This document shows, piece by piece, positions 1,196 through 22,689 of a stretch of DNA of 23,258 nt (position 1 is the stretch's first letter; each line of letters opens with the position of its first letter). A program made the translations under genes and the position numbers. The stretch comes from a virus. The DNA lies in the IMG/VR virus record IMGVR_UViG_3300045999_012878, positions 1 through 23,258 of that record. One strand, given 5' to 3'. Below the pieces are notes generated by a model. It saw only the letters and a program-made list of their open reading frames with translations, ran no database searches and was not told the DNA's origin.

Positions 1196-1207
1196 TTTAT
1201 AAATTTT

Positions 1208-8554: not shown

Positions 8555-9168
8555 AATAAATCATATAAATTATTTTGTCTTTCTTGTCTTTCAATATGTT
8601 TTGGATGGTATAAACAATAATCATCCTCTAATGGTAAAGTAGCCCAAGTGCTATGACCCATTAGTACTTCATGTACTTTATTACCCCAATTAATTTTTGG
8701 TGTGTTTTGAAGTATACGAGGTTGTAAATCTGGGAAATTAACCCATCCTTTTTCATTTACATTCCATCTCCATCTTTGAATATGTTCTTGAGTTAATCCT
8801 TCTACAGTATTAATTCTAGGAAGTAAAAATACTTCGGTTGTAGGATTATCTTGTAAAATTAGATGTAAATTTTGTAAAAATTCAACATTTAAATATTCAT
8901 CAGCATCGATTTGAAAAATCCAATCTCCAGTACAATGTTTTTTTAAATTATTTTTAAATGCCGCGAAATTACCTTTTAAAGGGAATTCAATAACAGTTAT
9001 TCTACCATAAAATTGATCTAATACTTTATATACTTCAGATGTAGTATTACCTTGATCACATTGAACTACTATTTCATCTTCATCTCTTTTATTAGTAATA
9101 AGAATACTTAGTAATCTCATTAATTCTTCGTGTTCATTACAAACAGGAATTGCATAACTTATTCTCAT
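8551..9168 (-). CDS. GT2 family glycosyltransferase
   Basis: A 205-residue inverting GT-A glycosyltransferase. ISYAIPVCNEHEEL (3-16) is the typical N-terminal strand and loop. IFQIDADEYL (84-93) contains the D-x-D-E donor/metal site. Near the end, NKVHEVLMG (162-170) and the His/Arg/Gln-rich tail resemble the short SunS/WaaE-type GT2 proteins whose C-termini carry 'KvHE...' and 'H.k...RQ'. It has no membrane segment, so it is a soluble enzyme using a nucleotide sugar. Its last codon overlaps the start of the epimerase gene (ATGA), suggesting coupled translation, and the epimerase product is a candidate donor by context only. Confidence 0.82.
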   Translation of the reverse strand: MRISYAIPVCNEHEELMRLLSILITNKRDEDEIVVQCDQGNTTSEVYKVLDQFYGRITVIEFPLKGNFAAFKNNLKKHCTGDWIFQIDADEYLNVEFLQNLHLILQDNPTTEVFLLPRINTVEGLTQEHIQRWRWNVNEKGWVNFPDLQPRILQNTPKINWGNKVHEVLMGHSTWATLPLEDDYCLYHPKHIERQERQNNLYDLL

Positions 9169-9174
9169 ATTTTT

Positions 9175-9627
9175 TTAACTATAAAAACCTATATAATCTA
9201 AAGCTTCAATAAAATCATTTTGAGAAAAATTTTTTAAAGATTTAATATCTGTTTTATGAGTATAAAATTCTTCAGTACCAGGTATTTTAAATTTACCTTT
9301 TTCTTCTTCGCTTACTTCAACAGCTTTTACACCTGCCCATTGCCAATTATCCTTAGTATTACCATTCGCAAATACTGTTCCTTTATCCTGAATATTAATA
9401 GTAATTGGATACCATACTCTATTTTCTGAGTCTTTATTTTTGAGATCTTTATAAAGTTCAGGTAAGGTTTCTTCATAGGTTTCAAAATCAAATTCTCCTT
9501 CTTTCATTAAATCATTTGTTTGAAAACCACATCCAAAACAGAAATAATTGTTTTTTACTTCGTTTACAGGAGTGACATAACAAGCATCACTCCCGCAACG
9601 TGGGCATATAGATAATTTATCTTTCAT
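9175..9627 (-). CDS. Zinc-ribbon protein of unknown function
   Basis: A 150-residue acidic protein with an N-terminal zinc ribbon: C8-x2-C11 (SICPRCG) and C30-x2-C33 (YFCFGCG), the knuckles of a four-Cys site like those in primase-type or transcription-factor-type ribbons. The rest (about 45-150) has no motif I recognise. It contains VWYPITINIQDKGTVFANG and WQWAGVKAVEV, which look like a small beta domain. The start overlaps the stop of the upstream 181-residue gene by one base (TAATG). Placement between glycosyltransferases does not define a role; it could be a regulatory or nucleic-acid-binding protein. Confidence 0.6.
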   Translation of the reverse strand: MKDKLSICPRCGSDACYVTPVNEVKNNYFCFGCGFQTNDLMKEGEFDFETYEETLPELYKDLKNKDSENRVWYPITINIQDKGTVFANGNTKDNWQWAGVKAVEVSEEEKGKFKIPGTEEFYTHKTDIKSLKNFSQNDFIEALDYIGFYS

Positions 9628-10172
9628 TATTTTTTATTTATTATAAATGTTAAATCTTGTATTTTAATATCAAATTTATCTTTAGAAATAAATTTATCTA
9701 CCATGCGTTGAAATAAATTTTTTCTCATCATTCCTGCCCCATCATTAGTATAGGCTTTAAAAAATAAAATATTTAAATCAGAGTTTTCAAAATAAGGAAT
9801 TACTTCATCTCTGACTATTTTTGATACTGAATCTAAATAGTGTTTACCTTTTAAGCCTTCTTTAGTTTTGGCATATCCCTTTTCAGTTTCAGGAAAATAA
9901 AAATCTAATACCCAATATTTAGTGTCTAAACCTTGTTTTTTTAGTGTTACCACCATCTGAGGATCATTATCTTGTTTTTGTATTTTCCAAATCTTTTGAC
10001 CATCAGACATATTATTTTCTTCATATTCATAAGCTAGTTCAGGATTAAGAAATTCATATAAACCTCTATTAGCTTTATTGTAATATTCATTTAAACCATA
10101 AGTATGAAGGGTTTTAGTATCTTCAATAAATGATAATTCAACCCATCTATCTAAATCTTTTCTACCTTTCAT
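9627..10172 (-). CDS. Conserved-looking phage protein, unknown function
   Basis: A 181-residue soluble protein with no recognised domain. Its central block has regular strand/helix alternation (QMVVTLKKQGLDTKYWVLDF, DLNILFFKAYTNDGAGMMRKNLFQRM), and the segment NDGAGMMRKNLFQRMV looks acetyltransferase-like (R/Q-x-x-G-x-A/G region near a helix) but lacks a proper motif. The start overlaps the GT4 stop and the end overlaps the zinc-ribbon start, each by one base, so the three genes are translated as a tight string. Coding status is supported by length, overlaps and a normal amino-acid composition. Confidence 0.6.
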   Translation of the reverse strand: MKGRKDLDRWVELSFIEDTKTLHTYGLNEYYNKANRGLYEFLNPELAYEYEENNMSDGQKIWKIQKQDNDPQMVVTLKKQGLDTKYWVLDFYFPETEKGYAKTKEGLKGKHYLDSVSKIVRDEVIPYFENSDLNILFFKAYTNDGAGMMRKNLFQRMVDKFISKDKFDIKIQDLTFIINKK

Positions 10173-11479
10173 TATTCCACTTTTTTAAGTTTAGGCAATT
10201 CAATTTTTTTCAATTGAGGTAATTTTAATTGAACTTGTTTTGGAAACTCAGGTACATTAGTAGTTAATATAGTATCTAATTTTTCTTGCATTTTTTCAAA
10301 TGAAAAATTAGTTTTACAGTAATGAGCTAAACGTTTACCGTTATCTTGGTATTTTTTATAATTTTCAAAATAATCTCTTAATAATCCCCCTGCAAATCCA
10401 TAATCAACAGTAAACCATTGTGATCCTTCAATTAACATATCTTTAACTTGTGCTGATGGGTGAATATTAATTAAAGTACCAGGTATTAATGAAGTAAATT
10501 CAGGGTTTAAAAAATCTAAATGACCACTCCAATTTGAAGCAATTACGGGTTTTTTAGTTTGAGTAAATTCAAGTAATGGTCTACCAAATCCCTCACCTTT
10601 AGTAAAACTAACCATTGCTTTTATTTTGGAATGGTTATATAATTGATTCATTTCATCATCAGATATTTCACCATGAAACAAATAGATGTTAGGTAAATTT
10701 TTAGAATTTACTGATTTTCTAAGAGCGTCTAATTTTTTTAAAATATTATCTCTATCCACAATACTAGTTGGGCCTGACATTGTTTTTAGGATAAGTGCTG
10801 GTTTTTTAGATTTGTTTTTAAATGATTCTAAAAATGTTTTAATTAAACCACCTACATCTTTTCTGTCTTGGAATATATCTCCTTGTAGCCAATGACCTGT
10901 AAATAGGAAAGCAAATTCTTCTTTTACATTATCTAATGCTTGTTTAATCTCAGAAGCAGGAGTTAATGTAGCTGAAAAATATTTAGTTATATCTACTCCT
11001 TCAAATAATACTTCAATAGGAGCTGTTAATTCTACAGTACCTACTACTTGTTTAGTTCTATCATCTTGTTTTTGAAATTTAGAATCTTGGAATACTTTTT
11101 TAGCATGTTCAGAAGAAACTAAATTTAAATTCATTCTATTCATACCCTCAATCCATTGTGGAGCACAAACTGTAGTTTCAATACCTGCTGTAATCCCAAT
11201 ATTATATTTTCCTACAGGTTGAAATTCATTAGGTACAGTAATTTGAGCCCAAATATCAGGTTGTTGTGTTAATTGACCTGTTAAAATATGTGATTGTAAA
11301 AAACCCCATTCTTCTTGATGATTTTCAATAAAACCCCAAGGTGTATTTCCCCAACGTTGTGGTAATATTTTAACATCATATTTATCCAAATTAATTAACG
11401 CCTTAACTAAATCACGAGAACGTGAACCATAACCTGAGTATGTATCTATAGGGCAACTTATTATAAATGTATTTTTCAT
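10172..11479 (-). CDS. GT4-like (GT-B fold) glycosyltransferase
   Basis: A 435-residue GT-B enzyme. The N-terminal domain begins with a strand and the loop DTYSGYGSRSRDLVKAL (12-28), the donor/acceptor cleft glycine-rich loop. The C-terminal domain has FLFTGHWLQ (191-199), a Lys/Arg-rich helix, and SFTKGEGFGRPLLEF (291-305), the 'E-G-F-G-x-x-x-x-E' nucleotide-sugar motif of GT4 retaining enzymes. It is followed by KPVIASNWSGHLDFL. The last 20 or so residues are a repetitive basic tail with two LP-x-LKK units that is not part of the catalytic fold and could mediate binding to a partner or polymer. It sits 9 bases after the second GT4 gene, and the two probably act in sequence on the same glycan. 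Confidence 0.8.
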   Translation of the reverse strand: MKNTFIISCPIDTYSGYGSRSRDLVKALINLDKYDVKILPQRWGNTPWGFIENHQEEWGFLQSHILTGQLTQQPDIWAQITVPNEFQPVGKYNIGITAGIETTVCAPQWIEGMNRMNLNLVSSEHAKKVFQDSKFQKQDDRTKQVVGTVELTAPIEVLFEGVDITKYFSATLTPASEIKQALDNVKEEFAFLFTGHWLQGDIFQDRKDVGGLIKTFLESFKNKSKKPALILKTMSGPTSIVDRDNILKKLDALRKSVNSKNLPNIYLFHGEISDDEMNQLYNHSKIKAMVSFTKGEGFGRPLLEFTQTKKPVIASNWSGHLDFLNPEFTSLIPGTLINIHPSAQVKDMLIEGSQWFTVDYGFAGGLLRDYFENYKKYQDNGKRLAHYCKTNFSFEKMQEKLDTILTTNVPEFPKQVQLKLPQLKKIELPKLKKVE

Positions 11480-11488
11480 TTTATTATA

Positions 11489-12913
11489 TTAATACGTTAA
11501 TTTATGAACTAATTCTAGAGGTTCCAAATCTTCTATCATAAAAAATTCAAAAGATTTTTTAGGTACAAATTTTTCTAATGTTAAATCAATATCTTTAATT
11601 ACATTATTACACATCATTCTAGCACTCATACCAGATTCATCTGATGTTACCCATTCTCTAGCTGCTTTACCATTTTCTATTCTTTCTTCAGGGGTTAATT
11701 CATAAACTTGTTGAATTGCTTTTGCTAAATCTCTAAAATCTAATCTATCATCCCAAATATAAGGTGTTATTGGTGAGCCTACTAATGACATATTACTTGG
11801 AAATACAGGTACTGCCCATTTACCATGTTTTTTATAAGTACCAAAATGATTAGAAGGAAAATCAGGTGTAAAATCGATCCATTTACCATTTTCATCTTCA
11901 AAACGCATTTGATCTTGCATACCTCCAGTTACATTAGCTATAATCATTTTACCCGCCATCATAGCTTCAGTTAATGCTAATCCCCATCCTTCATTTGAAG
12001 AAGGTAATACAGTTACATCTGCAATATTATAAATTCTATTTAATTCAACAGTATCAATTCTTTGATCTGAAAAGAATATGTTTGAGTTAGGGCCAAATAG
12101 TAAAGTTTTTACTGCATCCAAATCTGTACCGTTCCCATCTACAACTTGGGTATGTAATACTAAGGCGATTTTATCTGCTTTTTCTTTAGGTAAAGAATCT
12201 AAAAATATTTTGTGAGCAGCCATTAAATCACTTACACATTTTCTTCTAATATTTCTAGAATTAAAAAATACTACAAAATCAAATTCTTTATCTCCAAATA
12301 ATTTTTTCTTAGTATCTTGCAATTGTGTTTTATCTTCTATAGGAAAAAAATGATTTTCATTAATACCATGAGGTATATAAGAGATAAGTTTACCATCTGC
12401 TCTTTTACCTAAAACCATTTCATTAATGTTTTTAGTTTGTTTTGAGATAGCTAATAAAGTATCACATGATTCATAAAAAGCTCTATTGTATAATGGAGCT
12501 GGTAAGTCATCCCAAATGTTTAAATAAATCATTGGGATTTGTTTTCTTACTTCATTTTCAATAGCAAATAACCAATCATAATATCTTGGGTCTGTAAAAA
12601 ACATTAAACCATCAGGTTTTTCATTTTTTAACATAAACCTAATCAAATCTGCATTTCCATATCCGTTATGAGGATAAAGAACTACATTAGAATCAGTAAG
12701 TTGGGTTTCAGTATCTGTTGCTTGGGATAGATCTAATCTTTGACCATGTTCAGGGTGATTAATAGCAGCTCCAATTATTACCCAATTGTAATGGTGGGAA
12801 GTTCCTAAAACTATTTCTCGGGCCATTGTAGCAATACCCGAATGCATTCTAATGTCGTCGCAAATGAATAATATTTTTTTTCTTTGCTCTTTAGGTAGAT
12901 AACCTTCTTTCAT
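11489..12913 (-). CDS. GT4 family glycosyltransferase
   Basis: A 474-residue GT-B enzyme. KKILFICDDIRMHSGIATM (12-30) is the N-terminal Rossmann strand with the glycine-rich loop. ISYIPHGINENHF (177-189) matches the interdomain 'v.yiPnGvd...F' segment. VVFFNSRNIRRK (214-225) carries the basic residues that bind the donor diphosphate. LPSSNEGWGLALTEAMMAG (303-321) is the E-x7-E motif of retaining GT4 enzymes, with E308 and E316. No signal peptide or membrane helix is present. It lies 11 bases after the small ribbon-helix-helix-like gene and heads the glycan cassette as transcribed. Substrates cannot be read off. Confidence 0.85.
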   Translation of the reverse strand: MKEGYLPKEQRKKILFICDDIRMHSGIATMAREIVLGTSHHYNWVIIGAAINHPEHGQRLDLSQATDTETQLTDSNVVLYPHNGYGNADLIRFMLKNEKPDGLMFFTDPRYYDWLFAIENEVRKQIPMIYLNIWDDLPAPLYNRAFYESCDTLLAISKQTKNINEMVLGKRADGKLISYIPHGINENHFFPIEDKTQLQDTKKKLFGDKEFDFVVFFNSRNIRRKCVSDLMAAHKIFLDSLPKEKADKIALVLHTQVVDGNGTDLDAVKTLLFGPNSNIFFSDQRIDTVELNRIYNIADVTVLPSSNEGWGLALTEAMMAGKMIIANVTGGMQDQMRFEDENGKWIDFTPDFPSNHFGTYKKHGKWAVPVFPSNMSLVGSPITPYIWDDRLDFRDLAKAIQQVYELTPEERIENGKAAREWVTSDESGMSARMMCNNVIKDIDLTLEKFVPKKSFEFFMIEDLEPLELVHKLTY

Positions 12914-12924
12914 AAACTAATTTA

Positions 12925-13113
12925 TTATTTTTCTAATTCTAAATTCATATGGTTGTGAACTAATTTTTGGAACTCAGGATCCGTTAAATACAGATGCATA
13001 CATCTGTCTGCTAATTTTTGTAAAGAGAACTTAGTTTTAATTGTCTCTATTTTAAAGGCTTCAAAAATATCTTTGTCTACCTTCACACTTGTTAGTTGTT
13101 GATTTTGTGACAT
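12925..13113 (-). CDS. Small ribbon-helix-helix-like protein
   Basis: A 62-residue protein. Residues 8-15 (TSVKVDKD) could form the DNA-contacting beta strand and the following DIFEAFKIETIKTKFSLQKLADRCMHLYLTD two helices, the spacing seen in ribbon-helix-helix (MetJ/Arc) regulators and antitoxins. No toxin-like partner is adjacent. It stands just before the glycan cassette and just after a 43-base A/T-rich gap, so a local regulatory role is conceivable but only inferred. Start ATG at 13113-13111 has no Shine-Dalgarno sequence upstream, like most genes here. Confidence 0.6.
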   Translation of the reverse strand: MSQNQQLTSVKVDKDIFEAFKIETIKTKFSLQKLADRCMHLYLTDPEFQKLVHNHMNLELEK

Positions 13114-13156
13114 AATTATTTATTTTTATTATTAACATATATAAATATATTAATAT

Positions 13157-14128
13157 TTAATAAAATGTGAAGGGTTTTTTAATTTCTTCATTCTTATCAC
13201 ACAAATCAGGATTATTTGAATAAGGACAAAAAGTACAGTTATGTTTACTTGGTTTTTTCTCTAATTTAATTTGATTATAATCTCCATCAGCTGTAAACAC
13301 TTGAGTTAAAAAACTCTCTAATAATTGTGTCGACTTATTTAATTTTACTTTACCAGCAGCTGGTTGGAATTCTTGGATTCGTTTTTGTGGGAAATCGCCA
13401 CCTTCATATACTTTTCTTCTAGTGATAAAATATTCAACTTCAATATTATCAATTGGAAAATTATATTGTTCAGCAAAAAATTTTTTATAAAGAATTAATT
13501 GAGACATTTTAATGTCATCTTTTTTTTCTTTATCGCCCCAACCTCTAGTTGAGGTTTTAATATCAAGAATTTTTATTGTATTAGTTGGTTCATGATAAAA
13601 TACTACATCTAAAAATCCATTAAATAAAACATTACTTAATTTTTTAATTGGATTTAAAACAATAGGTATTTCACATCCTACTAAATACCATCCTCTTTTT
13701 GAGAAATAAATCCCTTTTTTCTTTTTAATATAATCTAAAATTTGAAGACCATCATCACAAAATTCAGCTAATTCAGCAGCATTTGAAAAATGAACATTTT
13801 TATTCTTTTTATAAAATTCTTGATATTCTTCTCTTAATATTGTTTTAAATTCAGTTTCAATATCTAATCTATCAGCCGCTGCTCCACTTTCTTCATAAAA
13901 TACCGTTAGATAATGTTGAAGAGCACGGTGTAAAGCCGTACCAAATACTGCATGTATGCTGGGTTCAAAAACTTTATATCCATCTCTATATTTTAAACCC
14001 CAATGATGTGGGCAATTTAAAAATATACTTAATTGAGAATAAGATACTGATTTATGATAGGCATAATTTATCTCGGGTACAGTTACTTTTTGTAAGTCTT
14101 TTAATATTTTAGGGGGTTTTTTAGCCAA
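13157..14128 (-). CDS. Cas4/RecB-like PD-(D/E)XK nuclease with putative Fe-S cluster
   Basis: A 323-residue PD-(D/E)XK nuclease with all expected features in order: SYSQLSIFLNCPHHW (29-43) at the N-terminus, GTALHRAL with H67, FNGFLDVVF with D174, ILDIKTS with D189-x-K191, and the Q210-x3-Y214 helix motif. C39 together with C298, C301 and C310 (one Cys N-terminal, three C-terminal) is the arrangement that ligates a 4Fe-4S cluster in Cas4, AddB and Dna2-type nucleases. The start is a TTG at 14128-14126, overlapping the DUF3310 gene by 8 bases; it was chosen because the next in-frame residues lead directly into the domain. There are no cas genes or CRISPR repeats nearby, so a phage recombination/repair role or host DNA processing is more likely than adaptation. 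Confidence 0.85.
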   Translation of the reverse strand: MAKKPPKILKDLQKVTVPEINYAYHKSVSYSQLSIFLNCPHHWGLKYRDGYKVFEPSIHAVFGTALHRALQHYLTVFYEESGAAADRLDIETEFKTILREEYQEFYKKNKNVHFSNAAELAEFCDDGLQILDYIKKKKGIYFSKRGWYLVGCEIPIVLNPIKKLSNVLFNGFLDVVFYHEPTNTIKILDIKTSTRGWGDKEKKDDIKMSQLILYKKFFAEQYNFPIDNIEVEYFITRRKVYEGGDFPQKRIQEFQPAAGKVKLNKSTQLLESFLTQVFTADGDYNQIKLEKKPSKHNCTFCPYSNNPDLCDKNEEIKKPFTFY

Positions 14129-14411
14129 GTTTTTTTCGGTTTTGGATTTCTCTATCTAAATAAAATAGAGCTTTTTCTAAATCTTGTATAATATCATCTT
14201 TTTTCCCTGCTCTAGAAATATATTTAAGAGTATTCCCTAAACAAAATCCTAAATCCCAAGCCTCTATAACTTTAATTGCCTCATAAGGATCATCCTTTCC
14301 TCCATAATGTTTAGGATGATTAACCATTTCTTTTTCTAATTTATCTTGGCTTATAGTAATAGTAACTTCTCTTTGATTCATTTCTTCAAATTTTTTAATT
14401 ATATCACTCAT
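14121..14411 (-). CDS. DUF3310 family phage protein
   Basis: A 96-residue protein. From about residue 30 it has the DUF3310 signature: NHPKHYGG, then DPYEAIKVIEAW, LGFCLGNTLKYISRAGKK and DLEKALFYLDREI. The family is common in tailed phages, often next to nucleotide-metabolism or replication genes, and has been described as nucleotide kinase-like by annotation, but it has no P-loop here and its activity is not established. The 5' end overlaps the 74-residue ORF and the 3' end overlaps the nuclease gene, each by 8 bases. Confidence 0.85.
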   Translation of the reverse strand: MSDIIKKFEEMNQREVTITISQDKLEKEMVNHPKHYGGKDDPYEAIKVIEAWDLGFCLGNTLKYISRAGKKDDIIQDLEKALFYLDREIQNRKKLG

Positions 14412-14628
14412 AAGTAAAATACATTTGTAATATATCTAATCTATCTTCAGCATCAGCTAACATTCTTAATGCATCCTCAGCATTATTATAAAAATCATTT
14501 GTTGAATGATCCCCAATACCTGAAGGATTTTCTGAGAGAAGATTTAGAGTTAATAATGCTTTAGCTCTATCAGATTCAGCTGATTTTTTAAGCATTTTAT
14601 GTAAATATGGGTTTAAGGGTTGTCTCAT
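14404..14628 (-). CDS. Small hypothetical protein (74 residues)
   Basis: I do not recognise this protein. It appears all-helical, with a basic N-terminus (MRQPLNPYLHKMLKKSAES) and an acidic C-terminal half (DALRMLADAEDRLDILQMY). The start overlaps the clamp loader small-subunit stop by 4 bases (ATGA) and the end overlaps the DUF3310 gene by 8. Coding is supported by this tight packing and by the absence of any other frame that could fill the space. Confidence 0.6.
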   Translation of the reverse strand: MRQPLNPYLHKMLKKSAESDRAKALLTLNLLSENPSGIGDHSTNDFYNNAEDALRMLADAEDRLDILQMYFTYE

Positions 14629-15047
14629 TTTAATAGTTTTTTTATTTCTTTCTCTTCTTTTCCTAATTGTTGTAGGATTAAAGTTATATCTTGTTGGGTT
14701 AAAATATCACAATAATCTAAAACTTCTCTAGTACTTATTTTAAAATATTCAGATAGTAAATTTATTACTTCTTTTACATATTGTTGTTTTATAGGTTTTA
14801 TGTATTTATTAAAAAATTTTTGTTTAGGTAAAGTCTTGCAATAAAATTCATATAACTTTTGTTTTGGAAGTTGATATTCTTGAATCTCAGCTACTAGTTC
14901 AACATAGTTAGGATTCATTGAAATAATTTTATTAATCATAAAATTGTTAAAGATCTCATGCTCCTCATTCGAAAATGAGGACCATGATTCTTTATCATAA
15001 GATATTTGTTTTATCCAATCAAAAATATTATTGATTTTCTTCTCCAT
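14625..15047 (-). CDS. 62: Clamp loader small subunit, gp62-like
   Basis: A 140-residue protein with the pattern of T4-type gp62: an N-terminal IFDWIKQISYDKESW (8-22), FNNFMINKIISMNPNYVELVAEI in the middle, KTLPKQKFFNKYIKP, and a C-terminal helical block ending in STREVLDYCDIL and KEEKEIKKLLK. In T4 one gp62 joins four gp44 subunits to load the gp45 clamp. It is shorter than T4 gp62 (187 residues). It lies two genes after the gp44-like ATPase, with an 82-residue ORF in between that it overlaps by 20 bases. Sequence similarity in this family is weak, so the call rests on pattern plus position. Confidence 0.7.
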   Translation of the reverse strand: MEKKINNIFDWIKQISYDKESWSSFSNEEHEIFNNFMINKIISMNPNYVELVAEIQEYQLPKQKLYEFYCKTLPKQKFFNKYIKPIKQQYVKEVINLLSEYFKISTREVLDYCDILTQQDITLILQQLGKEEKEIKKLLK

Positions 15048-15276
15048 CTTCTAAAATGAATTTAAATTCATCAGGTAAACCATCTTTTAAAATTTCACCA
15101 GTTTCTGGATTAAAAAATACAGGAATAGGTAATACATTATCTTCATTAGTGCCTGTAATAAATTTAGATACTTTTCTTAGAAGAAATCCTTGTTGCCAGA
15201 TTTTACCTCCATTAGAAGTTAAAATTGGGGTTGTTTTGCTTAAATCTAAGCTCATTTGTGGTTGTTGATTTTCCAT
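15028..15276 (-). CDS. Small hypothetical protein between clamp loader genes
   Basis: An 82-residue protein that I do not recognise. It has a Gln-rich start, a basic centre (GFLLRKVSKFITG) and a strand-rich acidic end (VLPIPVFFNPETGEI, then DGLPDEFKFILEDGEE). It starts 2 bases after the gp44-like stop and overlaps the gp62-like start by 20 bases, thus separating two genes that adjoin in T4. It could be a small clamp loader accessory protein or unrelated. Confidence 0.6.
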   Translation of the reverse strand: MENQQPQMSLDLSKTTPILTSNGGKIWQQGFLLRKVSKFITGTNEDNVLPIPVFFNPETGEILKDGLPDEFKFILEDGEENQ

Positions 15277-15278
15277 TT

Positions 15279-16190
15279 TTATTTAGTTGTTAATAATTTT
15301 GATACGCAGGCACAAAAGGTAATTTCTTTATCAGGTGCCATAATTGATTTGTGTTGGTAATCTGCTATTATAAGAGTAGCAATTGCTGAATCGGTGTATT
15401 CATCAGCTCTCTCAAATAGTATTCTATATAACTCATTGTAATCTCTAATATTAGAATCCATTACTAACTGTCTTATAGTAGTAAAATTCTTAGTATTTTT
15501 AGTTTTTAGTAGTTCTATTACTTGATCAGATGTTTGTTTAAAATTAGAGAGTGATCTACTTTGTTGTAATTCTCCATTTTTAATGGATGATTGAAGTAAA
15601 TTCAAACATTTTCTAATATCAGGATATGTTTGTTTAATAATTCTTACTACATCAGCTTTAGTATAAGTAATACCTTCTAAATCTAAAATTTCAACACATT
15701 TAAATGCTACATCTTGCATTGATGGAGGAGTTAATTCAAACATAACAGTTCTAGATTGAATTGGATCAATTATTCTTTCTATAAAATTGCAAGTAAATAT
15801 AAAACGAGCATTTAAACTGTAAGTTTCAATAACATTACGTAAAGCAGCTTGAGCATTAATAGTTAAAAAATCAGCTTCATCCATTATAACCACTTTTTGT
15901 GGTTTAAAACTAGCGGCTGAAACAAACGATTTTACCTTATCTCTAATAGTATCAATACCGTTTTCATCAGAACAATTAATGTAAAGATAATCACAGTTAA
16001 TGTTGTTTACTATTAATTTGGCAGCAGTTGTTTTACCTGTACCTGCAGGTCCTGTAAGTAATAAGTGAGGGATATCATTAGAATCAATCCATTGTTGTAA
16101 TGAAGATTTAAAATCATCATTTCCAATATATCCTTCTAAGGTATCAGGTCTATACTTTTCGGTAAATAAGGTGTGTTTTTTATTGAACAT
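15279..16190 (-). CDS. 44: Clamp loader large subunit (AAA+ ATPase), gp44-like
   Basis: A 303-residue AAA+ clamp loader ATPase. TEKYRPDTLEGYIGND (10-25) is the RFC-box lead-in. GPAGTGKTT (47-55) is Walker A, VVIMDEADFL (100-109) is Walker B with the DEAD-type box, and FIFTCNF (130-136) is sensor 1. IQSRTVMFEL (144-153) stands where clamp loaders have the S-R-C arginine finger; Thr replaces Cys and the Arg is kept. The C-terminal third is the helical collar. With gp62 it would open and close the sliding clamp at primer ends, using ATP. The gene begins 43 bases after groEL, separated by a strong hairpin, so its expression relative to the chaperonin genes may be adjusted there. Confidence 0.9.
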   Translation of the reverse strand: MFNKKHTLFTEKYRPDTLEGYIGNDDFKSSLQQWIDSNDIPHLLLTGPAGTGKTTAAKLIVNNINCDYLYINCSDENGIDTIRDKVKSFVSAASFKPQKVVIMDEADFLTINAQAALRNVIETYSLNARFIFTCNFIERIIDPIQSRTVMFELTPPSMQDVAFKCVEILDLEGITYTKADVVRIIKQTYPDIRKCLNLLQSSIKNGELQQSRSLSNFKQTSDQVIELLKTKNTKNFTTIRQLVMDSNIRDYNELYRILFERADEYTDSAIATLIIADYQHKSIMAPDKEITFCACVSKLLTTK

Positions 16191-16206
16191 AACTTTTATA
16201 ATATAT

Positions 16207-16226
16207 GGAGCCTCTTTCGAGGCTCC
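16207..16226 (-). terminator. GC-rich hairpin with GAAA tetraloop after groEL
   Basis: A perfect 8-bp inverted repeat GGAGCCTC/GAGGCTCC with a four-base loop that reads GAAA on the transcribed strand, a GNRA tetraloop. It begins 7 bases after the groEL stop codon and is by far the most G+C-rich short element in the neighbourhood. On the transcribed strand it is followed by ATATATTATAAAAG, not a clean U-run, so simple intrinsic termination would be weak. RNA 3'-end protection, partial termination or processing between groEL and the clamp loader gene is equally plausible. Confidence 0.65.
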
Positions 16227-16233
16227 AAATTTA

Positions 16234-17874
16234 TTACATCATCCCTTGCATAGGATTGACTTCTTCTTTTTTGTCTTCTTTTTTCTCGTAAATTACAGAT
16301 TCGGTTGTTAAAATTGTACCCGCAACTGAAGCTGCATTTTCTAGTGCTACGCGGGTTACTTTTTTAGGATCGATAATACCTGCAGATTTGAAATTAATTG
16401 TTGATAAGTCTTTATAGTTAAGACCTTCCCAATTGCTTCCTTTTTCTGAGTCAGTTAGTTTGGAACCTAAGTATTGAACTTCTGTTAAATCATGCCCGGC
16501 ATTAGTTAAAATTCGTTGGAATGGAGCAGCTGCTGCTCTATAAACGATTTTCTTACCGTTTACAAAATCATTTGAACCTTCAAAAGTAATACCTTTACGA
16601 GCATATAATAAAGCAGTTCCACCACCAATTACAATACCTTCTTCTAAAGCGGCTTTTGTAGCGAATAAAGCATCTTCTACTCTATCTTTTTTCTCTTTGA
16701 TTTCAAGTTCACTATTACCACCTACGTTAATAATAGCTACCCCACCAATCATTTTACCTAAACGCTCTTGTAATTTTTCTTTCTCAAATGGTGAACCAGC
16801 GTCATCAATTTGTTTTTTAATTTCTTGAGCTCTAGTTTCAATTGCTTCTTCTGATCCTTTACCATCTACAATAGTAGTTTTTTCTTTACCAATTGTAGCA
16901 GTACGAGAAGTACCTAAACATTGTTTTAATGTACTAACATCAATTTTATCAAGTTTATGACCTTTATCTTTAGAAAGAACTTGACCTCCTGTAATAATAG
17001 CTAAATCTTCTAAAGCCATTGTTCTACGATCTCCAAATTCAGGAGCTTTAACTGCTACTACATTTACAATACCTCTCATTTTATTAACAATAGATACAGC
17101 TAATGCTTCTCCGTCAACATCTTCTGCTACTACTAATAATGCTCGTTTTTCAGTGTTAGCTAATGTTAAAGCTGGTACTAATTCATTTACTGTTGTTATT
17201 CTACCATTGTAAATTAAAATGTAAGGGTTTTCTAATACAGCAGTCATTGTATTATTATCAGTTACAAAATAAGGTGATTTGTAACCTCTATCAAATTGCA
17301 TTCCTTCAACAATTTCAAGTGAAGTTTCACCTGATTTAGATTCTTCAATTGCAACAATTCCATCTCTACCTACTTTTTCTAAAGCAGTAGCAATTAAGTT
17401 ACCAATTTCTTCATCATTATTACCTGAAATGGTAGCAACTTCTTTAATTTGTTGGTTATCAGAAATATCTTCTGTTAGGTTGTTAAGAGCTGATTTAAGT
17501 TCTTCTACAGCTGCATCAATTCCTTTTTTAATTTCGATTGGATTTTGACCTGCACTAACATGTTTTAATCCTTCTTCTAGAATGGCATAAGACAATAAAG
17601 TAGAAGTAGTAGTACCATCACCTACTTCATTTGCAGATTTAACTGATACTTTTTTAACTAATTCAGCACCAATTGATTCAATTGGATCTTCTAATTCTTT
17701 AAATTCTTTAGCTACAGATACACCGTCTTTGGTTACTGTTAATTGACCATAATCTCCTTTGATTAATACTGTTCTACCTGCTGGTCCTAAGGTAGAGGAT
17801 ACACTATCATTAAGTTTTTTAACTCCTGATAATAGTTTTGTTTTTAATTCTGTTCCGAATGCTGTTTCTGTCAT
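16234..17874 (-). CDS. groEL: Chaperonin GroEL (60 kDa, Cpn60)
   Basis: A full-length 546-residue group I chaperonin. ATP-site elements are present: STLGPAGR (27-34), TKDG with D50, VGDGTTTSTLL with D86, and EDALFATKAA with D401, matching E. coli D52, D87 and D398. Apical substrate-binding aromatics are kept (Y198, Y202, F203). A late GGGTALL block is also present. The normally near-invariant APGFGDRR reads APEFGDRR here (E279 for Gly). The C-terminal tail is short (NPMQGMM) rather than a long GGM repeat. It starts 2 bases after groES. Phage GroEL is uncommon; T4 brings only a co-chaperonin (gp31) for capsid folding. It would work with the adjacent GroES, probably on phage structural or replication proteins, and could form mixed or separate rings from the host chaperonin. 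Confidence 0.96.
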   Translation of the reverse strand: MTETAFGTELKTKLLSGVKKLNDSVSSTLGPAGRTVLIKGDYGQLTVTKDGVSVAKEFKELEDPIESIGAELVKKVSVKSANEVGDGTTTSTLLSYAILEEGLKHVSAGQNPIEIKKGIDAAVEELKSALNNLTEDISDNQQIKEVATISGNNDEEIGNLIATALEKVGRDGIVAIEESKSGETSLEIVEGMQFDRGYKSPYFVTDNNTMTAVLENPYILIYNGRITTVNELVPALTLANTEKRALLVVAEDVDGEALAVSIVNKMRGIVNVVAVKAPEFGDRRTMALEDLAIITGGQVLSKDKGHKLDKIDVSTLKQCLGTSRTATIGKEKTTIVDGKGSEEAIETRAQEIKKQIDDAGSPFEKEKLQERLGKMIGGVAIINVGGNSELEIKEKKDRVEDALFATKAALEEGIVIGGGTALLYARKGITFEGSNDFVNGKKIVYRAAAAPFQRILTNAGHDLTEVQYLGSKLTDSEKGSNWEGLNYKDLSTINFKSAGIIDPKKVTRVALENAASVAGTILTTESVIYEKKEDKKEEVNPMQGMM

Positions 17875-17876
17875 AA

Positions 17877-18170
17877 TTATTCTTCTATAACTGATAAAAT
17901 ATCATTTTGGTTAGCGATTAAATATTCTTCTCCTTCAAGTTTAACTTTGTGAGTTCCCATTGGTGGTAGTACAACTTTCATTCCTGCTCTTAGATCTGTA
18001 GGAGCATATTCTCCTTTGTTGTAGTTATAAACTTGGGATACAGCCAATATTTCTCCCATAATTGGTCTTTCATTCCCCATATCAGGGATAATGATGTTAC
18101 CCACCATCATTTCTGATTCTTCCATGGGTTTTAGAATAACATTACCGTTTCTCGGTTTTAATTTACTCAT
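17877..18170 (-). CDS. groES: Co-chaperonin GroES (Cpn10)
   Basis: A 97-residue Cpn10. KPRNGNVILKPME (5-17) is the first conserved strand. The mobile loop around 18-30 carries the hydrophobic tripeptide III (26-28), where E. coli GroES has IVL, for docking to the GroEL apical domain. MGEILAVS and AGMKVVLPPMGTHKVKLEGE (62-81) form the barrel, and the end NQNDILSVIEE matches the family ('...dIlavie'). It is unlike T4 gp31 in being of ordinary GroES length and pattern. The start overlaps the 100-residue ORF by 8 bases and the groEL start follows its stop by 2 bases, the usual ES-EL order. Confidence 0.95.
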   Translation of the reverse strand: MSKLKPRNGNVILKPMEESEMMVGNIIIPDMGNERPIMGEILAVSQVYNYNKGEYAPTDLRAGMKVVLPPMGTHKVKLEGEEYLIANQNDILSVIEE

Positions 18171-18465
18171 GATTAATTAAAGTTTTTAGATTGTTTAAAG
18201 TTGTTTCTAATTCAGTGATATACTCTTTAATAGTATAATTAGATTTTTTTTCTGTAACCTGTTCTTTAGCTATACGTTTTAAAGCACTAGATAAATGGGT
18301 ATAATACCCCATTGGCTTTTCTTTTTTAGTTTTAGGTTCAGTAAAAACTAAATTATAACTATCTTCATCAATGATAATTTTGTAATTTCCCATAGCAGGA
18401 TCTTCAATCATTGATCTTTTCTTAACTGTGCCTTTTTGTCGGCCTTTAAAATTGTAATTTGCCAT
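18163..18465 (-). CDS. Small phage protein of unknown function, first gene of the chaperonin operon
   Basis: A 100-residue protein with a basic N-terminus (MANYNFKGRQKGTVKKRS). A small strand-turn-strand core (NYKIIIDEDSYNLVF) is followed by YYTHLSSALKRIAKEQV and a helical C-terminus (YTIKEYITELETTLNNLKTL). This 'short beta hairpin, YY..L..AL..I, helix' pattern resembles small phage proteins often annotated as DUF5405-like; I treat this as a loose resemblance. It overlaps groES by 8 bases and follows an 81-base gap with hairpins, so any promoter for the chaperonin genes probably lies just upstream of it. Confidence 0.6.
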   Translation of the reverse strand: MANYNFKGRQKGTVKKRSMIEDPAMGNYKIIIDEDSYNLVFTEPKTKKEKPMGYYTHLSSALKRIAKEQVTEKKSNYTIKEYITELETTLNNLKTLINHE

Positions 18466-18480
18466 AACTTTTCTTATTTG

Positions 18481-18499
18481 TTTCGTATAAAATACGAAA
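18481..18499. repeat. Perfect 19-base palindrome upstream of the groES operon
   Basis: TTTCGTAT, three bases, then ATACGAAA: an 8-bp perfect inverted repeat centred 25 bases before the start of the 100-residue ORF. It could be an operator for a dimeric repressor or a leader-RNA hairpin. On the plus strand it is followed by GATTTTTTGGG, which would look like a terminator, but no rightward gene ends here. Confidence 0.6.
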
Positions 18500-18518
18500 G
18501 ATTTTTTGGGTATCCAAA
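18487..18518 (-). promoter_or_regulatory. Possible Bacteroidota-type promoter for the groES-groEL operon
   Basis: Reading leftward, TTTG (18518-18515), 20 bases, then TATTTTAT (18494-18487) loosely resembles the Bacteroidota -33/-7 pattern (TTTG, about 19, TAnnTTTG). Two of the last positions of the -7 box do not fit. It falls in one of only two gaps over 80 bases in the window and overlaps the 19-base palindrome, which would make sense for a regulated promoter. Chance occurrence in A/T-rich DNA is a real alternative. Confidence 0.22.
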
Positions 18519-18546
18519 CAAAACTTAACCTAAGGGCATAAGGTTA
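18514..18546 (-). terminator. Terminator-like hairpin after hsp20
   Basis: Immediately after the hsp20 TAA the transcribed strand reads TAACCT, nine bases (TATGCCCTT), AGGTTA, then AGTTTTGTTTGG. A 6-bp stem followed by a T-rich run fits a weak rho-independent terminator in an A/T-rich genome. The stem contains part of an 11-base element that recurs inverted upstream of hsp20. Confidence 0.45.
18528..18538. repeat. Left copy of 11-base inverted repeat flanking hsp20
   Basis: ACCTAAGGGCA on the plus strand, in the gap just downstream of hsp20. The exact reverse complement TGCCCTTAGGT occurs at 19008-19018 in the gap upstream of hsp20. The two copies bracket the gene. Confidence 0.6.
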
Positions 18547-18954
18547 TTATTTTATTTTTATTGATTTTGGTTTTGATTTTTCAGCTACAGGTATAGAAAT
18601 CTCTAGCAAACCATTTTCTAGTTTTGCTACTGCTAAAGATAAGTCATATTTAGCTGAAATTTTATAACCTAAATTAAAGGATTTTTTAGATAATCCTCTA
18701 TGAATTGTACCAGGGTGCAATTCTTTTTCTTCTGAAGGTTTGGTATAACTAATTTTTAAGATATCATCTTCAATATCTACTTTTACATCATCTTTAGAAA
18801 GACCGGTGCACGCTACTTCAAAATGAAGTCCGTCATCGTTATAAAAGATATTTAAAGGGTGAGGTTGTTTTGTGGTTGCTGCTGAACCGAATCCACTTGT
18901 AGGGTAAAAGAAATTGTGGAATAGAATGTCAAATTCATTAAAGTTTGTACTCAT
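18547..18954 (-). CDS. hsp20: Small heat-shock protein (Hsp20/alpha-crystallin family)
   Basis: A 135-residue holdase-type chaperone. A short variable N-terminus (1-33) with the phenylalanine-rich FDILFHNFFYP is followed by an alpha-crystallin beta sandwich: ACTGLSKDDVKVDIEDDILKI is cut here to its core GLSKDDVKVDIEDD (51-64), and the signature A-x3-N-G-L-L occurs at 110-117 (AKLENGLL). The C-terminal SIKIK contains the I-x-I motif (I132, I134) used for oligomer assembly. Hsp20 genes are known in T4-like cyanophages, where they are thought to protect proteins during virion assembly. It stands alone between two gaps of about 80 bases with hairpins and an inverted repeat, so it may be its own transcription unit. 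Confidence 0.9.
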   Translation of the reverse strand: MSTNFNEFDILFHNFFYPTSGFGSAATTKQPHPLNIFYNDDGLHFEVACTGLSKDDVKVDIEDDILKISYTKPSEEKELHPGTIHRGLSKKSFNLGYKISAKYDLSLAVAKLENGLLEISIPVAEKSKPKSIKIK

Positions 18955-18971
18955 ATTGATTTACGTTTTGT

Positions 18972-18988
18972 GAGTGCTTTAGCTACTC
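18972..18988 (-). promoter_or_regulatory. Small hairpin in the hsp20 leader
   Basis: The plus strand reads GAGTGC, TTTA, GC, one bulged T, ACTC. The transcript would fold as a 6-bp stem with one bulge and a four-base loop, 17 bases upstream of the hsp20 start. It might affect hsp20 translation or stability; RNA-thermometer behaviour is speculation, since the start codon itself is not visibly paired. Confidence 0.35.
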
Positions 18989-19007
18989 GTTATTAAATGA
19001 TTTAAAG

Positions 19008-19018
19008 TGCCCTTAGGT
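19008..19018. repeat. Right copy of 11-base inverted repeat flanking hsp20
   Basis: TGCCCTTAGGT on the plus strand, in the gap between the sliding-clamp gene and hsp20. It is the exact reverse complement of the copy at 18528-18538. Confidence 0.6.
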
Positions 19019-19036
19019 CATTTGTCATAAATATTA

Positions 19037-19759
19037 TTACTCATGTAAAGCTACAAGAAAATATTCAGCTTTTACACCTGCTTCTTCTAAGTTAACTTTC
19101 AATAAACCATCTTTATAAAGATATGCTTTACCAACTGCATCTTTGTTTACAGATATTATTTCTCTAAAATTAGAAGCACTAAATGCTACTGGTTTTACTT
19201 TATTGATGATTTTACCAGGTTCAGAAAAATTAACTTTATTTGAATAAGATGATTTTTCACCTATTGTAAAATTAACAACATCTTCATTTTGGAAATCTTT
19301 AGTTATTCCTATTTCAAAACGAGGTGGTTTATCTAATGCATTGTGTGCTTTAATATACTTTTGAGTAAAATCAAAATTAATATCAAATTCTAGATCATGT
19401 GGTGGTAAATTTGGAGCTACACCTGGATCCTGAATTAAACCTAGATCACTTAAATTATAAGATAAATCAAATTGATTATCACTAATATGTAATTTTAAAA
19501 AGTGGTTGTTTTGTTTTTCTAGTTTTAATTCAATAAAATCATTTGTAATATTAAGTAATTTAAGCAATTGACCAGTATTAAAGATACCAATCTCGCAATC
19601 TTCTAAGGTTATAGGCGCTATAACTTCTCCAATACAGTCTTTATTGTCAACTGCAAATTTAATGTGAGCTTCGTTGTTTTTTACCTTAAATTTAACTTGA
19701 GATGTTAAACCATTTAAATAAAAACTTTCAATAATTTGTGTTAATATTATTTTATCCAT
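19037..19759 (-). CDS. 45: DNA polymerase sliding clamp, gp45-like
   Basis: A 240-residue protein of the size of T4 gp45 (228 residues), with the two-domain beta-rich layout of trimeric phage clamps. Domain 1 (about 1-110) contains FNTGQLLKLLNI (60-71). The central interdomain stretch contains LGLIQDPGVAPNLPPHDLEF. Domain 2 has FSASNFREIISVNK. The ring encircles DNA and tethers the polymerase; in T4 it also activates late transcription. The start codon overlaps the stop of the polymerase C-terminal gene by one base (TAATG). Identification rests on motif order and its position between polymerase and clamp loader genes. Sequence similarity is low, as is usual in this family. Confidence 0.82.
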   Translation of the reverse strand: MDKIILTQIIESFYLNGLTSQVKFKVKNNEAHIKFAVDNKDCIGEVIAPITLEDCEIGIFNTGQLLKLLNITNDFIELKLEKQNNHFLKLHISDNQFDLSYNLSDLGLIQDPGVAPNLPPHDLEFDINFDFTQKYIKAHNALDKPPRFEIGITKDFQNEDVVNFTIGEKSSYSNKVNFSEPGKIINKVKPVAFSASNFREIISVNKDAVGKAYLYKDGLLKVNLEEAGVKAEYFLVALHE

Positions 19760-20694
19760 TAGTTGAATGTAAAAAATTTATGTATTAGTGGATTTGCAGG
19801 TGGTAATTGCCATTCTAAATCATCATAAAAACCTTGTAATTTGTTTTGTAATATAGTTTCAAAACTTTTACCTCTATCAATATATTCATTAATAAAATTT
19901 CTAATTTTATTAGCCATATCAAATTCTAGAAAAGCAATTGCTTCTATATTATACGGATTATTTTTTAAATAAACCCATTTTATTTTATCACCTTGTACAA
20001 TTTGACTATGTTTAGAATCTAATTGCCAAAATCTTAATAAATCATTATGTTTAATAGCTGCTTTAACTGATGCACCTGCTCCTTGTTTTATTTCAGATAA
20101 TATTTTACCTGGTCTAGGATGTGAAGCAATATATTCATTTAGTGTTTTAACTGCTGTTGGATTACCAATTAATGTAAAATCAACATCAGATGAAGTAGCT
20201 TCTTGTCTAAATTCATGAATTTTTTTATCTACGATACTTTGTGGAGTACCTTTAATAATTAGTTCAAGAATTTCTTGATAAAATTTACCAAAATATTTTG
20301 GAAAATTAGCTTTTTTAAATTCTAATCCTTTAATATCAAGTTCTTCTTTGATAATACCTTCTTTTTTAGTAATCCATTGTGCATAACGTCTTGTAGCTCT
20401 AAAATAAGCAGAACGAATAACACACTCGGTTTTCATTTCTAATCGGTGTGTACTAACATTAAAAGCTTCTTTAGCTAAAATGTTATAATATTCTGTTATA
20501 ATATCTTGATATTTAAGAGCTACTTTTTCTAATAAATCATCTTTTTCTTGATCAGTTTTCTCATCAAAATCAGGATATAAGTGTTTTAATAAAGGTTCAG
20601 CATTAAAATAATTAGAGTCTGTATCCACATAGGCGCAAAAATTAAAATCACCTTCATCACAAATCCACCATGGGGTATCTTCTAAATGTTTCAT
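19759..20694 (-). CDS. 43B: Family B DNA polymerase, C-terminal part (motif C, thumb)
   Basis: A 311-residue protein that completes the polymerase. CAYVDTDSNYF (20-30) is motif C, with the catalytic D24 and D26. RATRRYAQW (99-107) matches the K-K-R-Y palm/thumb motif. LDIKGLEFKKANFPKY (119-134) matches the 'lkimGmE...s..Pk' thumb block of T4/RB69 gp43, and the rest follows gp43 to its end. The tail IHKFFTFN is an aromatic clamp-binding type peptide like the C-terminus of gp43. Added to the N-terminal part (576 residues) the total is 887, close to T4 gp43 (898). The first 18 or so residues have no clear gp43 counterpart and may form the interface. It starts one base after the ORF87 stop and overlaps the clamp gene by one base. 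It cannot act alone because motifs A and B are on the other chain. Confidence 0.93.
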   Translation of the reverse strand: MKHLEDTPWWICDEGDFNFCAYVDTDSNYFNAEPLLKHLYPDFDEKTDQEKDDLLEKVALKYQDIITEYYNILAKEAFNVSTHRLEMKTECVIRSAYFRATRRYAQWITKKEGIIKEELDIKGLEFKKANFPKYFGKFYQEILELIIKGTPQSIVDKKIHEFRQEATSSDVDFTLIGNPTAVKTLNEYIASHPRPGKILSEIKQGAGASVKAAIKHNDLLRFWQLDSKHSQIVQGDKIKWVYLKNNPYNIEAIAFLEFDMANKIRNFINEYIDRGKSFETILQNKLQGFYDDLEWQLPPANPLIHKFFTFN

Positions 20695-20695
20695 A

Positions 20696-20959
20696 TTAAA
20701 ATGTTCTTTCTCCTGGTACTGGGGGTAAATTAATAGGCCTGTTACCTTTTGAATCTATATCAGATCTTTCTTTAAGAATTATTTCAAATGAATTTTTATT
20801 AATCTTACATCTGCCTCCTTGTTGTAGCATTTTTTTAAAAAATTTTTCTTGTAAAGCATCCCAACTTTTAGATAATTCAATAACTAATTGTTTTTCAACT
20901 TTAGAACCATTTATATAAATAGTAGTTCCATTTTTAATGGATTGTCCTTTTAATGCCAT
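20696..20959 (-). CDS. ORF87 lying between the two DNA polymerase parts
   Basis: An 87-residue, Lys-rich protein that I do not recognise. It contains a short strand pair (GTTIYINGSKVEKQLVI) and an amphipathic helix (SWDALQEKFFKKMLQQGG), then a strand segment (KINKNSFEIILKE) and a Pro-rich tail (INLPPVPGERTF). It has no intein blocks, no GIY-YIG, LAGLIDADG or HNH motif, and no polymerase sequence. Its start overlaps the stop of the N-terminal polymerase gene (TAATG) and the C-terminal gene starts one base after its stop, so all three are probably translated in fixed proportion. It could be a third polymerase subunit, a remnant of the element that split the gene, or a passenger. Confidence 0.7.
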   Translation of the reverse strand: MALKGQSIKNGTTIYINGSKVEKQLVIELSKSWDALQEKFFKKMLQQGGRCKINKNSFEIILKERSDIDSKGNRPINLPPVPGERTF

Positions 20960-22689
20960 TATATTTCTAATTTAATTTCTCCTCTTAATACTTTGTTCAT
21001 ATGTCTGTTAGCACAAAGTGCTGATTCTTGAATAATACGTTGTCCACTTAAAGTAATTGCTTCTGATAATATTACATTTCCATATCTAAATGTAGGTAAT
21101 GCAGTAGCACCATAAAGTGAATTAAGTAAGATTTTCATTGTATATTGTAATAAATGGTATTTTTCACCTCCTACTGTATCACCTGCTTTATAAGCTGCTT
21201 TCATTTTGTTTTTATATAAAACTCTTTCATCAAACCATTTATTCAAAATAGTTGATAATACGGACTCTTTATCTGTACGAAATATAACACCATTTGCTGA
21301 GATAGCCAAATTATATTGCTGAAGTAGTTTAACTATTTTAGAAGAAGTCCAATCAATTTTATTGAATTTATCTTTATTAGCAAACCATTCAGTAGTACGA
21401 GGTTTATCTTCAGTATCATTAATTAAATCATTTAAACCTAAACGATTATTTCTATCATTGAAATCAATAATTCTACCTACTAATGTTTCTTTACCAATAT
21501 TAAGAGACATAATAATTGAAGGATATAGCGAAGTTAAATCTTCATCAAACATGTAACGGTATAAACCTGCTTTAGGACAAAATAAATAACCTCCAGCATA
21601 ATTAGCTTTTTTAATAGGATTTCTATCTCTAGAAGGTGGTACTATACCTTCAGATAATAAAAACGCTGAAATTGCACCATCATGAATTTTAGATGATTGG
21701 TAAACATCATCATAATGGATTTTACCTTTATGTGATAAATTTTTAGTTAAACTAATATAATTGAATTTGTTGTCTAATGCTTTTAAGATTTCAACATCTC
21801 TAAAGTTATATTCAATAAATTTTTCTTTATCAGTTTCAAATAACCTATCTAAGCTACCTTCATATTCAATTTTAGATAATTTACAGTATCTTTCTCCTAA
21901 TGCATCTAATTTATAAGAAGGTTCATCAGCAAATGAATATTTTTTATGTAAACGAAGATAATCTAAAGAGTAAACACCTTCAATCCTTATAGGTTGATCT
22001 TCATCATAAATTATAACTCCATCATCTCTGGTGTATTTTTGTTCTTTAATTTTACCTATTGGAGATAAAGCACTAGCTCTACGTTCGCCTAATTGATTTA
22101 AAATTCTATAATAAAGATAAGGTATATCAAAATAATCACTATTATAACCAATTAAAATATCAGGACTAACTTTAGTTAAATAATTTAACCATTTATTTAA
22201 TAACTCTCTTTCATTAGGTACAGGGATAATATGTTTATTTCCTACAGTAGTTTTTTCAATTTTATTTTCTTTGTCTAAAATTAAAATATACCATTTATCT
22301 TCTTGTTTATGCCACCAAGCAATTGAAGTAACGGGTTTTGGTGCTTTTCTGATATATTCAGGAGTAAGAGCACCACCCATTTCAATCTCAATATCAAAAA
22401 ATATTTCTTGATGTGTAGTTGAAGGTTCATCATTTATACCGTACTTATCAATCAAAAATTTTTGATGTACAGGCATATCATGATAATGGATAAATGGATT
22501 ACTTCCTTCCCAATAAGTAACTCGTTTTAAGGGTTCTCCATTTAGACCAAAATGTGTAGCCTGGTCTTGGCCACACACTTCATAAGCATAGTTTTGGAAT
22601 TCATATTGTTCTACTCCATCATCGGTCCATAAGATAATATTATATCTGTTTTTACCCAATGAAGTAGTTGATATATTTTTATAACTCAT
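20959..22689 (-). CDS. 43A: Family B DNA polymerase, N-terminal part (3'-5' exonuclease, palm motifs A and B)
   Basis: A 576-residue protein corresponding to the first two thirds of T4-type gp43. FFDIEIE (97-103; D99, E101) is Exo I. GYNSDYFDIPYL (181-192; D185) is Exo II. YNFRDVEIL (294-302; D298) is Exo III. DLTSLYPSII (384-393; D384) is palm motif A. The fingers carry R489/K493, and KILLNSLYGA (519-528; K519, N523, Y526) is motif B. The chain stops at GEIKLEI shortly after motif B, just before motif C would come, so it has an exonuclease but an incomplete polymerase active site. It should assemble with the C-terminal product encoded 265 bases further on. The start has AAAGG 8 bases upstream, one of the few Shine-Dalgarno-like sites in the window. 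The previous gene ends 18 bases before it. Confidence 0.95.
   Translation of the reverse strand: MSYKNISTTSLGKNRYNIILWTDDGVEQYEFQNYAYEVCGQDQATHFGLNGEPLKRVTYWEGSNPFIHYHDMPVHQKFLIDKYGINDEPSTTHQEIFFDIEIEMGGALTPEYIRKAPKPVTSIAWWHKQEDKWYILILDKENKIEKTTVGNKHIIPVPNERELLNKWLNYLTKVSPDILIGYNSDYFDIPYLYYRILNQLGERRASALSPIGKIKEQKYTRDDGVIIYDEDQPIRIEGVYSLDYLRLHKKYSFADEPSYKLDALGERYCKLSKIEYEGSLDRLFETDKEKFIEYNFRDVEILKALDNKFNYISLTKNLSHKGKIHYDDVYQSSKIHDGAISAFLLSEGIVPPSRDRNPIKKANYAGGYLFCPKAGLYRYMFDEDLTSLYPSIIMSLNIGKETLVGRIIDFNDRNNRLGLNDLINDTEDKPRTTEWFANKDKFNKIDWTSSKIVKLLQQYNLAISANGVIFRTDKESVLSTILNKWFDERVLYKNKMKAAYKAGDTVGGEKYHLLQYTMKILLNSLYGATALPTFRYGNVILSEAITLSGQRIIQESALCANRHMNKVLRGEIKLEI

What the first reader, a model, noticed from the sequence alone, without database searches (positions are those of the whole stretch)
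19759..22689. DNA polymerase split into two genes exactly before motif C, with a foreign ORF between
The first chain holds the exonuclease and motifs A and B; the second holds motif C and the thumb, so neither can polymerise alone. Neither chain has intein blocks, so trans-splicing is not the explanation. Both halves keep every catalytic residue and the total length matches T4 gp43, so this looks like a working two-subunit enzyme, not decay. Split gene 43 has been described in some Aeromonas T4-type phages; a version in this phage type with a translated ORF in the seam would extend that.
Basis: partly seen in the sequence, partly recalled or inferred. Interest (0 to 1): 0.85.

Follow-up and report, generated by a model that had tools for sequence, protein, structure and literature searches.

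The report
Two-piece phage DNA polymerase with cargo
A widespread group of T4-type water phages makes its DNA polymerase as two separate proteins broken inside the active-site region, and the gap between the two genes carries optional extra genes; split polymerases are known elsewhere, but I found no description of this break point and its cargo in the papers I could search.

Summary
On the minus strand, gp43A (22689-20959; exonuclease, motifs A and B), an 87-aa ORF (20959-20696) and gp43B (20694-19759; motif C, thumb) follow each other. It is not a sequencing error: 134 distinct seams from viral contigs are broken at the same place, and both halves are under purifying selection (dN/dS about 0.1).

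Best reading: a stable two-subunit gp43-type polymerase made from overlapping or abutting cistrons. The break lies in the palm loop before motif C, not where Aeromonas gp43A/B breaks (before motif B). gp43B starts with a conserved segment (MKHLEDTPWWIC) not seen in unsplit relatives.

ORF87 is neither a fixed third subunit nor simply foreign: it is a selected small gene family, mostly but not only in the seam, and absent from many split loci. The seam also holds endonuclease-like and sugar or amino-acid genes, up to 4.2 kb.

Eleven close relatives have a fused gene; trees lean towards re-fusion but do not settle it. Some distant relatives are broken in the same loop, with tails resembling decayed inteins. 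The origin of the split is open. Assembly and activity are inferred, not shown.

The parts
20959..22689 (-). gp43A: exonuclease domain, PolB motifs A and B (576 aa)
   Evidence: Pfam PF03104 and PF00136, phrog_262 86-567; alignment
20962..20982 (-). C-terminal tail of gp43A (GEIKLEI), variable between lineages
20957..20961 (-). TAATG: stop of gp43A overlapping the start of ORF87
20696..20959 (-). ORF87: small conserved gene in the seam, optional in relatives
   Evidence: family alignment A1, dN/dS 0.188, distribution
19759..20694 (-). gp43B: motif C (YVDTDS) and thumb (311 aa)
   Evidence: phrog_262 565-847; model matches RB69 gp43
20647..20694 (-). N-terminal segment of gp43B (MKHLEDTPWWICDEGD), conserved in split loci; proposed docking segment
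   Evidence: E5, P8, I11 identical in 96/96 loci; absent from unsplit homologues
19037..19759 (-). Next gene (240 aa), start overlaps the stop of gp43B; sliding clamp by position only (context)
   Evidence: no family match
15279..16190 (-). Clamp loader, gp44 type (context)
   Evidence: phrog_168, E 4.7e-85
14625..15047 (-). Clamp loader, gp62 type (context)
   Evidence: phrog_225, E 1.1e-20

Best explanation
This is a gp43-type family B replicative polymerase permanently encoded as two cistrons. gp43A (exonuclease, motifs A and B) and gp43B (motif C, thumb) are made from overlapping or abutting reading frames and are inferred to fold together through the palm into one active heterodimer, with the conserved N-terminus of gp43B and perhaps the C-tail of gp43A as the new interface. 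ORF87 and other genes in the seam are optional passengers in what has become an ordinary gene junction. Shown: the break, its conservation, selection on both halves, the optional cargo, and unsplit relatives. Inferred: assembly, activity, the role of the interface, and the origin of the break.
For: Same break in 134 distinct seams. All catalytic motifs kept. dN/dS 0.105 (A) and 0.124 (B). A single PolB in the long relatives searched and no DNA_pol_A match over the curated cut-off in four of them. The gp43B model matches RB69 gp43 in the PDB (best E 3.4e-11). B residues E5, P8 and I11 are identical in 96/96 loci. Overlapping ATGA or TAATG junctions. Precedent: split gp43A/B of Aeromonas phage 25 co-purify and are active (review PMC2988022).
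Against: No complex model and no biochemistry. The gp43B model is weak at its N-terminus (pLDDT about 50). An RNA-level event joining the halves is not excluded by sequence alone, although Rfam finds no intron in the window or in eight loci scanned.
Confidence: 0.88

Rival explanations
1. ORF87 is an obligatory third subunit that bridges the two halves.
For: It sits in 101 of 134 seams, is under purifying selection, and keeps overlapping stop/start junctions.
Against: 24 seams abut with nothing between; longer records of split phages without seam ORF87 have none elsewhere (partial genomes); it lies outside the seam in L228 and in the fused-polymerase phage L360.
Confidence: 0.07
2. Origin by intein decay: a split intein with an endonuclease gene broke the gene near motif C, the intein was lost, and the halves stayed apart.
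For: L338 has a split intein at motif C with an ORF between the halves; L285, L287 and L159 are broken in the same loop with gp43A tails resembling the end of an intein N-half (shuffle test against L338: 4, 0 and 13 of 5000); erratic intein excision is the published view for archaeal split PolB3 (PMC4104785).
Against: No intein remnant is recognisable in the window's clade; tails were chosen after inspection; one of two reference inteins did not match; Pfam does not recognise the tails.
Confidence: 0.35
3. Origin by a small frameshift in a loop, rescued by an overlapping ATG; ORF87 and other cargo moved in later.
For: Abutting loci have an ATGA overlap; fused relatives have a loop of similar length there, so little sequence had to be added.
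Against: ORF87 is present in most deep lineages of the clade, so the abutting state may be secondary.
Confidence: 0.4
4. Pseudogene, assembly or sequencing error.
For: None found.
Against: Same break in 134 seams from many contigs; both halves under purifying selection.
Confidence: 0.01

Closest known systems
Split gp43A/gp43B of Aeromonas phages 44RR and 25
   Same: T4-type PolB made from two adjacent genes; phage 25 has a homing endonuclease in the gap; the halves are reported to co-purify and be active (PMC2988022).
   Different: The break is before motif B, about 100 alignment columns upstream; the gap holds untranslated sequence (44RR) or an endonuclease (25), and gp43B of phage 25 also has a group I intron.
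Split PolB3 of Methanobacteriales (Kelman et al. 1999, cited in PMC4104785)
   Same: Family B polymerase in two genes, thought to descend from erratic intein excision.
   Different: Archaeal; the break residue was not compared here.
Split PolB with a split intein: Pseudomonas phage MIJ3 (PMC6892783), Nanoarchaeum equitans (PMC4104785)
   Same: Polymerase gene broken in two; in MIJ3 an endonuclease gene lies between.
   Different: Intein halves at the break can rejoin the protein; none is detected in the window's chains.
Split DNA polymerase of OM43 phages MEP401/MEP402 (PMC10580990)
   Same: Polymerase in two genes with a small ORF of unknown function between, recurrent in the group.
   Different: A different phage group related to Zobellviridae; no sequence comparison made here.
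Polymerase of Microcystis phage Mel-JY01 (PP395634)
   Same: Best match in the phage collection, with a related 250-aa gene downstream.
   Different: Single 848-aa chain, about 34% identical.

Membership tests
T4 gp43-type family B DNA polymerase | 3'-5' exonuclease domain and PolB motifs A, B and C | tested here: met
   Pfam/PHROG hits and alignment, spread over two chains
T4 gp43-type family B DNA polymerase | Palm/thumb fold of the C-terminal part | tested here: met
   gp43B model against RB69 gp43, best E 3.4e-11
T4 gp43-type family B DNA polymerase | Polymerase activity | not testable with these tools
   needs purified chains
Aeromonas split gp43A/gp43B | Break at the same residue | tested here: not met
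   44RR breaks before motif B, the window before motif C
Aeromonas split gp43A/gp43B | Chains co-purify and are active together | not testable with these tools
   experiment
Split-intein (fractured) PolB | Intein halves at the break | tested here: not met
   No intein family in gp43A, ORF87 or gp43B; present in the distant relative L338
Intron-split gene | Self-splicing intron RNA | tested here: not met
   No Rfam match in the window or in the eight loci scanned
Homing endonuclease (for ORF87) | Nuclease domain | tested here: not met
   No Pfam hit for the window's ORF87; only weak PHROG hits for some members, best E 0.0012, to a family of unknown function; low-confidence model without a PDB match
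Methanobacteriales split PolB3 | Break position | not tested
   sequence not fetched
T4-type (gp23) phage | gp23-type major capsid in the same genome | tested here: inconclusive
   Not testable in the 23 kb window, but found in four related split-polymerase records and in Mel-JY01

The most novel reading that the evidence does not exclude
The loop before motif C is a recurrent, reversible gene-fission point in phage polymerases: split-intein or endonuclease elements break it, remnants or new tails serve as the docking interface, the seam becomes a parking place for cargo genes, and some lineages have fused the gene again.
Probability: 0.25. Interest if true: 0.75.

Novelty: new variant of a known kind. 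Interest (0 to 1): 0.55.

Why it matters
It shows that a replicative polymerase can stay in two pieces across a large, diverse phage clade while the gap between the pieces takes up other genes. Fused and split close relatives side by side make it possible to test how an enzyme is cut in two, how a new interface evolves, and whether fission can be undone. The natural break next to the active site could also guide split-polymerase designs in the laboratory.

Tried and rejected
Sequencing error or pseudogene: rejected by 134 seams and by dN/dS. Intron: no Rfam match. Intein in the window: none. Same break as Aeromonas phages: rejected. ORF87 as endonuclease remnant or known fold: no credible family hit, model pLDDT 69.6, no PDB match. 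ORF87 as a required subunit: disfavoured by its distribution. ORF87 in isolated phages: no match. Seam DNA in plasmids: none. Ribosome-binding-site test of the seam starts: mixed (gp43B 42%, ORF87 19%, next gene 3%, random positions 17%). I first took every member of the clade to be split; the fused loci overturned that. I compared the seam with the next junction so as not to over-read the cargo: among loci found through gp43A or gp43B, 18 of 91 seams carry other cargo and 11 of 84 gp43B-to-next-gene junctions carry inserts, so the seam is not clearly special apart from ORF87.

Full report
What is there. On the minus strand of the 23,258-base viral record, gp43A (22689-20959), ORF87 (20959-20696) and gp43B (20694-19759) follow each other with overlapping or nearly touching stops and starts, and the next gene starts on the stop of gp43B. 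gp43A carries the exonuclease and motifs A and B; gp43B carries motif C and the thumb; together they match phrog_262 (856 positions) from 86 to 847. The gp43B model, built from 34 relatives, matches RB69 gp43 in the PDB. T4-type clamp-loader genes, GroEL, GroES and Hsp20 lie in the same cluster, and longer related records carry a gp23-type capsid.

It is real and conserved. tblastn layouts of the fetched loci show the break at the same place in 134 distinct seams; one search adds more split loci, partly from the same contigs. Both halves are under purifying selection (median dN/dS 0.105 and 0.124; ORF87 0.188). Only one PolB was found in each of the longer relatives searched.

Where the break falls. 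Aligned with unsplit T4-type polymerases it lies in the loop between the palm helix after motif B and the strand with motif C, where the split clade has about 20 extra residues. In 96 loci the start of gp43B is strongly conserved: E5, P8 and I11 in all, W9 in 93, C12 in 94. The Aeromonas 44RR break is well upstream, before motif B, so it is an independent event. A review reports that the phage 25 halves co-purify and are active (PMC2988022); another attributes archaeal split PolB3 genes to erratic intein excision (PMC4104785).

What lies in the seam. ORF87 is found by tblastn in 101 of 134 seams; 24 seams abut directly, typically with an ATGA overlap. Other cargo includes an HNH-like gene (L010, L013), a GIY-YIG gene (L055, L056), a T5orf172-domain gene (L136), a PLP-dependent enzyme, a cupin, a cytidylyltransferase-like gene, an aminotransferase and genes that look like glycosyltransferases; the longest seam is 4,214 bases. 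L022-L024 have gp43A tails like those of the HNH loci but no HNH gene, as if it had been lost. The sample is biased: 43 of the 134 seams were found through ORF87 itself. Of the 91 found through gp43A or gp43B, 60 have ORF87 and 18 have other cargo, against 11 of 84 inserts at the next junction.

What ORF87 is. The family aligns over its length with six invariant residues and has no Pfam hit and only weak PHROG hits. Its predicted fold is of low confidence and matches nothing in the PDB. It is not found in 44-110 kb records of several split phages, lies about 7 kb from a fused polymerase in L360 beside an exonuclease-like gene, and lies with no polymerase in L228. It is therefore an optional gene that favours this place. 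Its function is not known; a small accessory protein of the replication cluster is a guess from its neighbours.

Unsplit and differently broken relatives. A sister group is mostly single-chain (L140 and kin, Mel-JY01). Within and near it, L285, L287/L288 and L159 are broken in the same loop with other genes between, and their gp43A tails resemble the last part of an intein N-half (shuffle test against L338: 4, 0 and 13 of 5000). L338 has an intact-looking split intein at motif C with an ORF between the halves. Support is moderate: the tails were picked after seeing them, and of two reference inteins only one matched. Eleven closer relatives (L354, L355, L359-L367) have a fused gene with a loop of similar length but without PWWIC. 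Against the outgroups sampled earlier the split loci form one clade, but once the fused loci are added the trees place them beside the L100 subclade, inside the split group, which would mean re-fusion or two splits. AU tests of one split clade give p 0.049 to 0.26 depending on data and model, so this stays open.

Conclusion. The best explanation is a stable two-subunit enzyme (0.88), with ORF87 as an optional passenger. The origin is unresolved between intein decay (0.35) and a small frameshift rescued by an overlapping start (0.40). Split PolB genes are a known kind; this break point, its persistence in a large clade and its cargo seam make it a new variant. I found no paper describing it in the open-access library searched, which lacks most subscription journals.

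Noticed in passing
L287 about 3845-3849 (identical DNA in L288): Inside the motif C codons a TAATG stop-start interrupts YVDT|DSVF, so this polymerase would be in three or more pieces or broken.
   Followed up: partly
L159 (LR756508) 12001-19706: A 484 kb phage whose PolB has a Hint-like insert near motif B, a break before motif C with about 3 kb of other ORFs, and a complete intein at TD|TDS.
   Followed up: partly
L338 6001-10084: PolB broken at motif C by an intact-looking split intein with an ORF between the halves.
   Followed up: partly
window 16234-18954: GroEL, GroES and Hsp20 homologues sit inside the replication gene cluster.
   Followed up: no
window 236-12913: A run of sugar-related genes: glycosyltransferases, a nucleotide-sugar epimerase, a mannose-6-phosphate isomerase-like cupin and a methyltransferase.
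   Followed up: no
L022, L023, L024 seams: gp43A tails as in the HNH-carrying loci but no HNH gene; a possible scar of its loss.
   Followed up: partly
L351-L358: Relatives occur in contigs binned with Flavobacteriales, Flavobacteriaceae and Pelagibacter genomes; a weak hint at hosts, possibly mis-binning.
   Followed up: no
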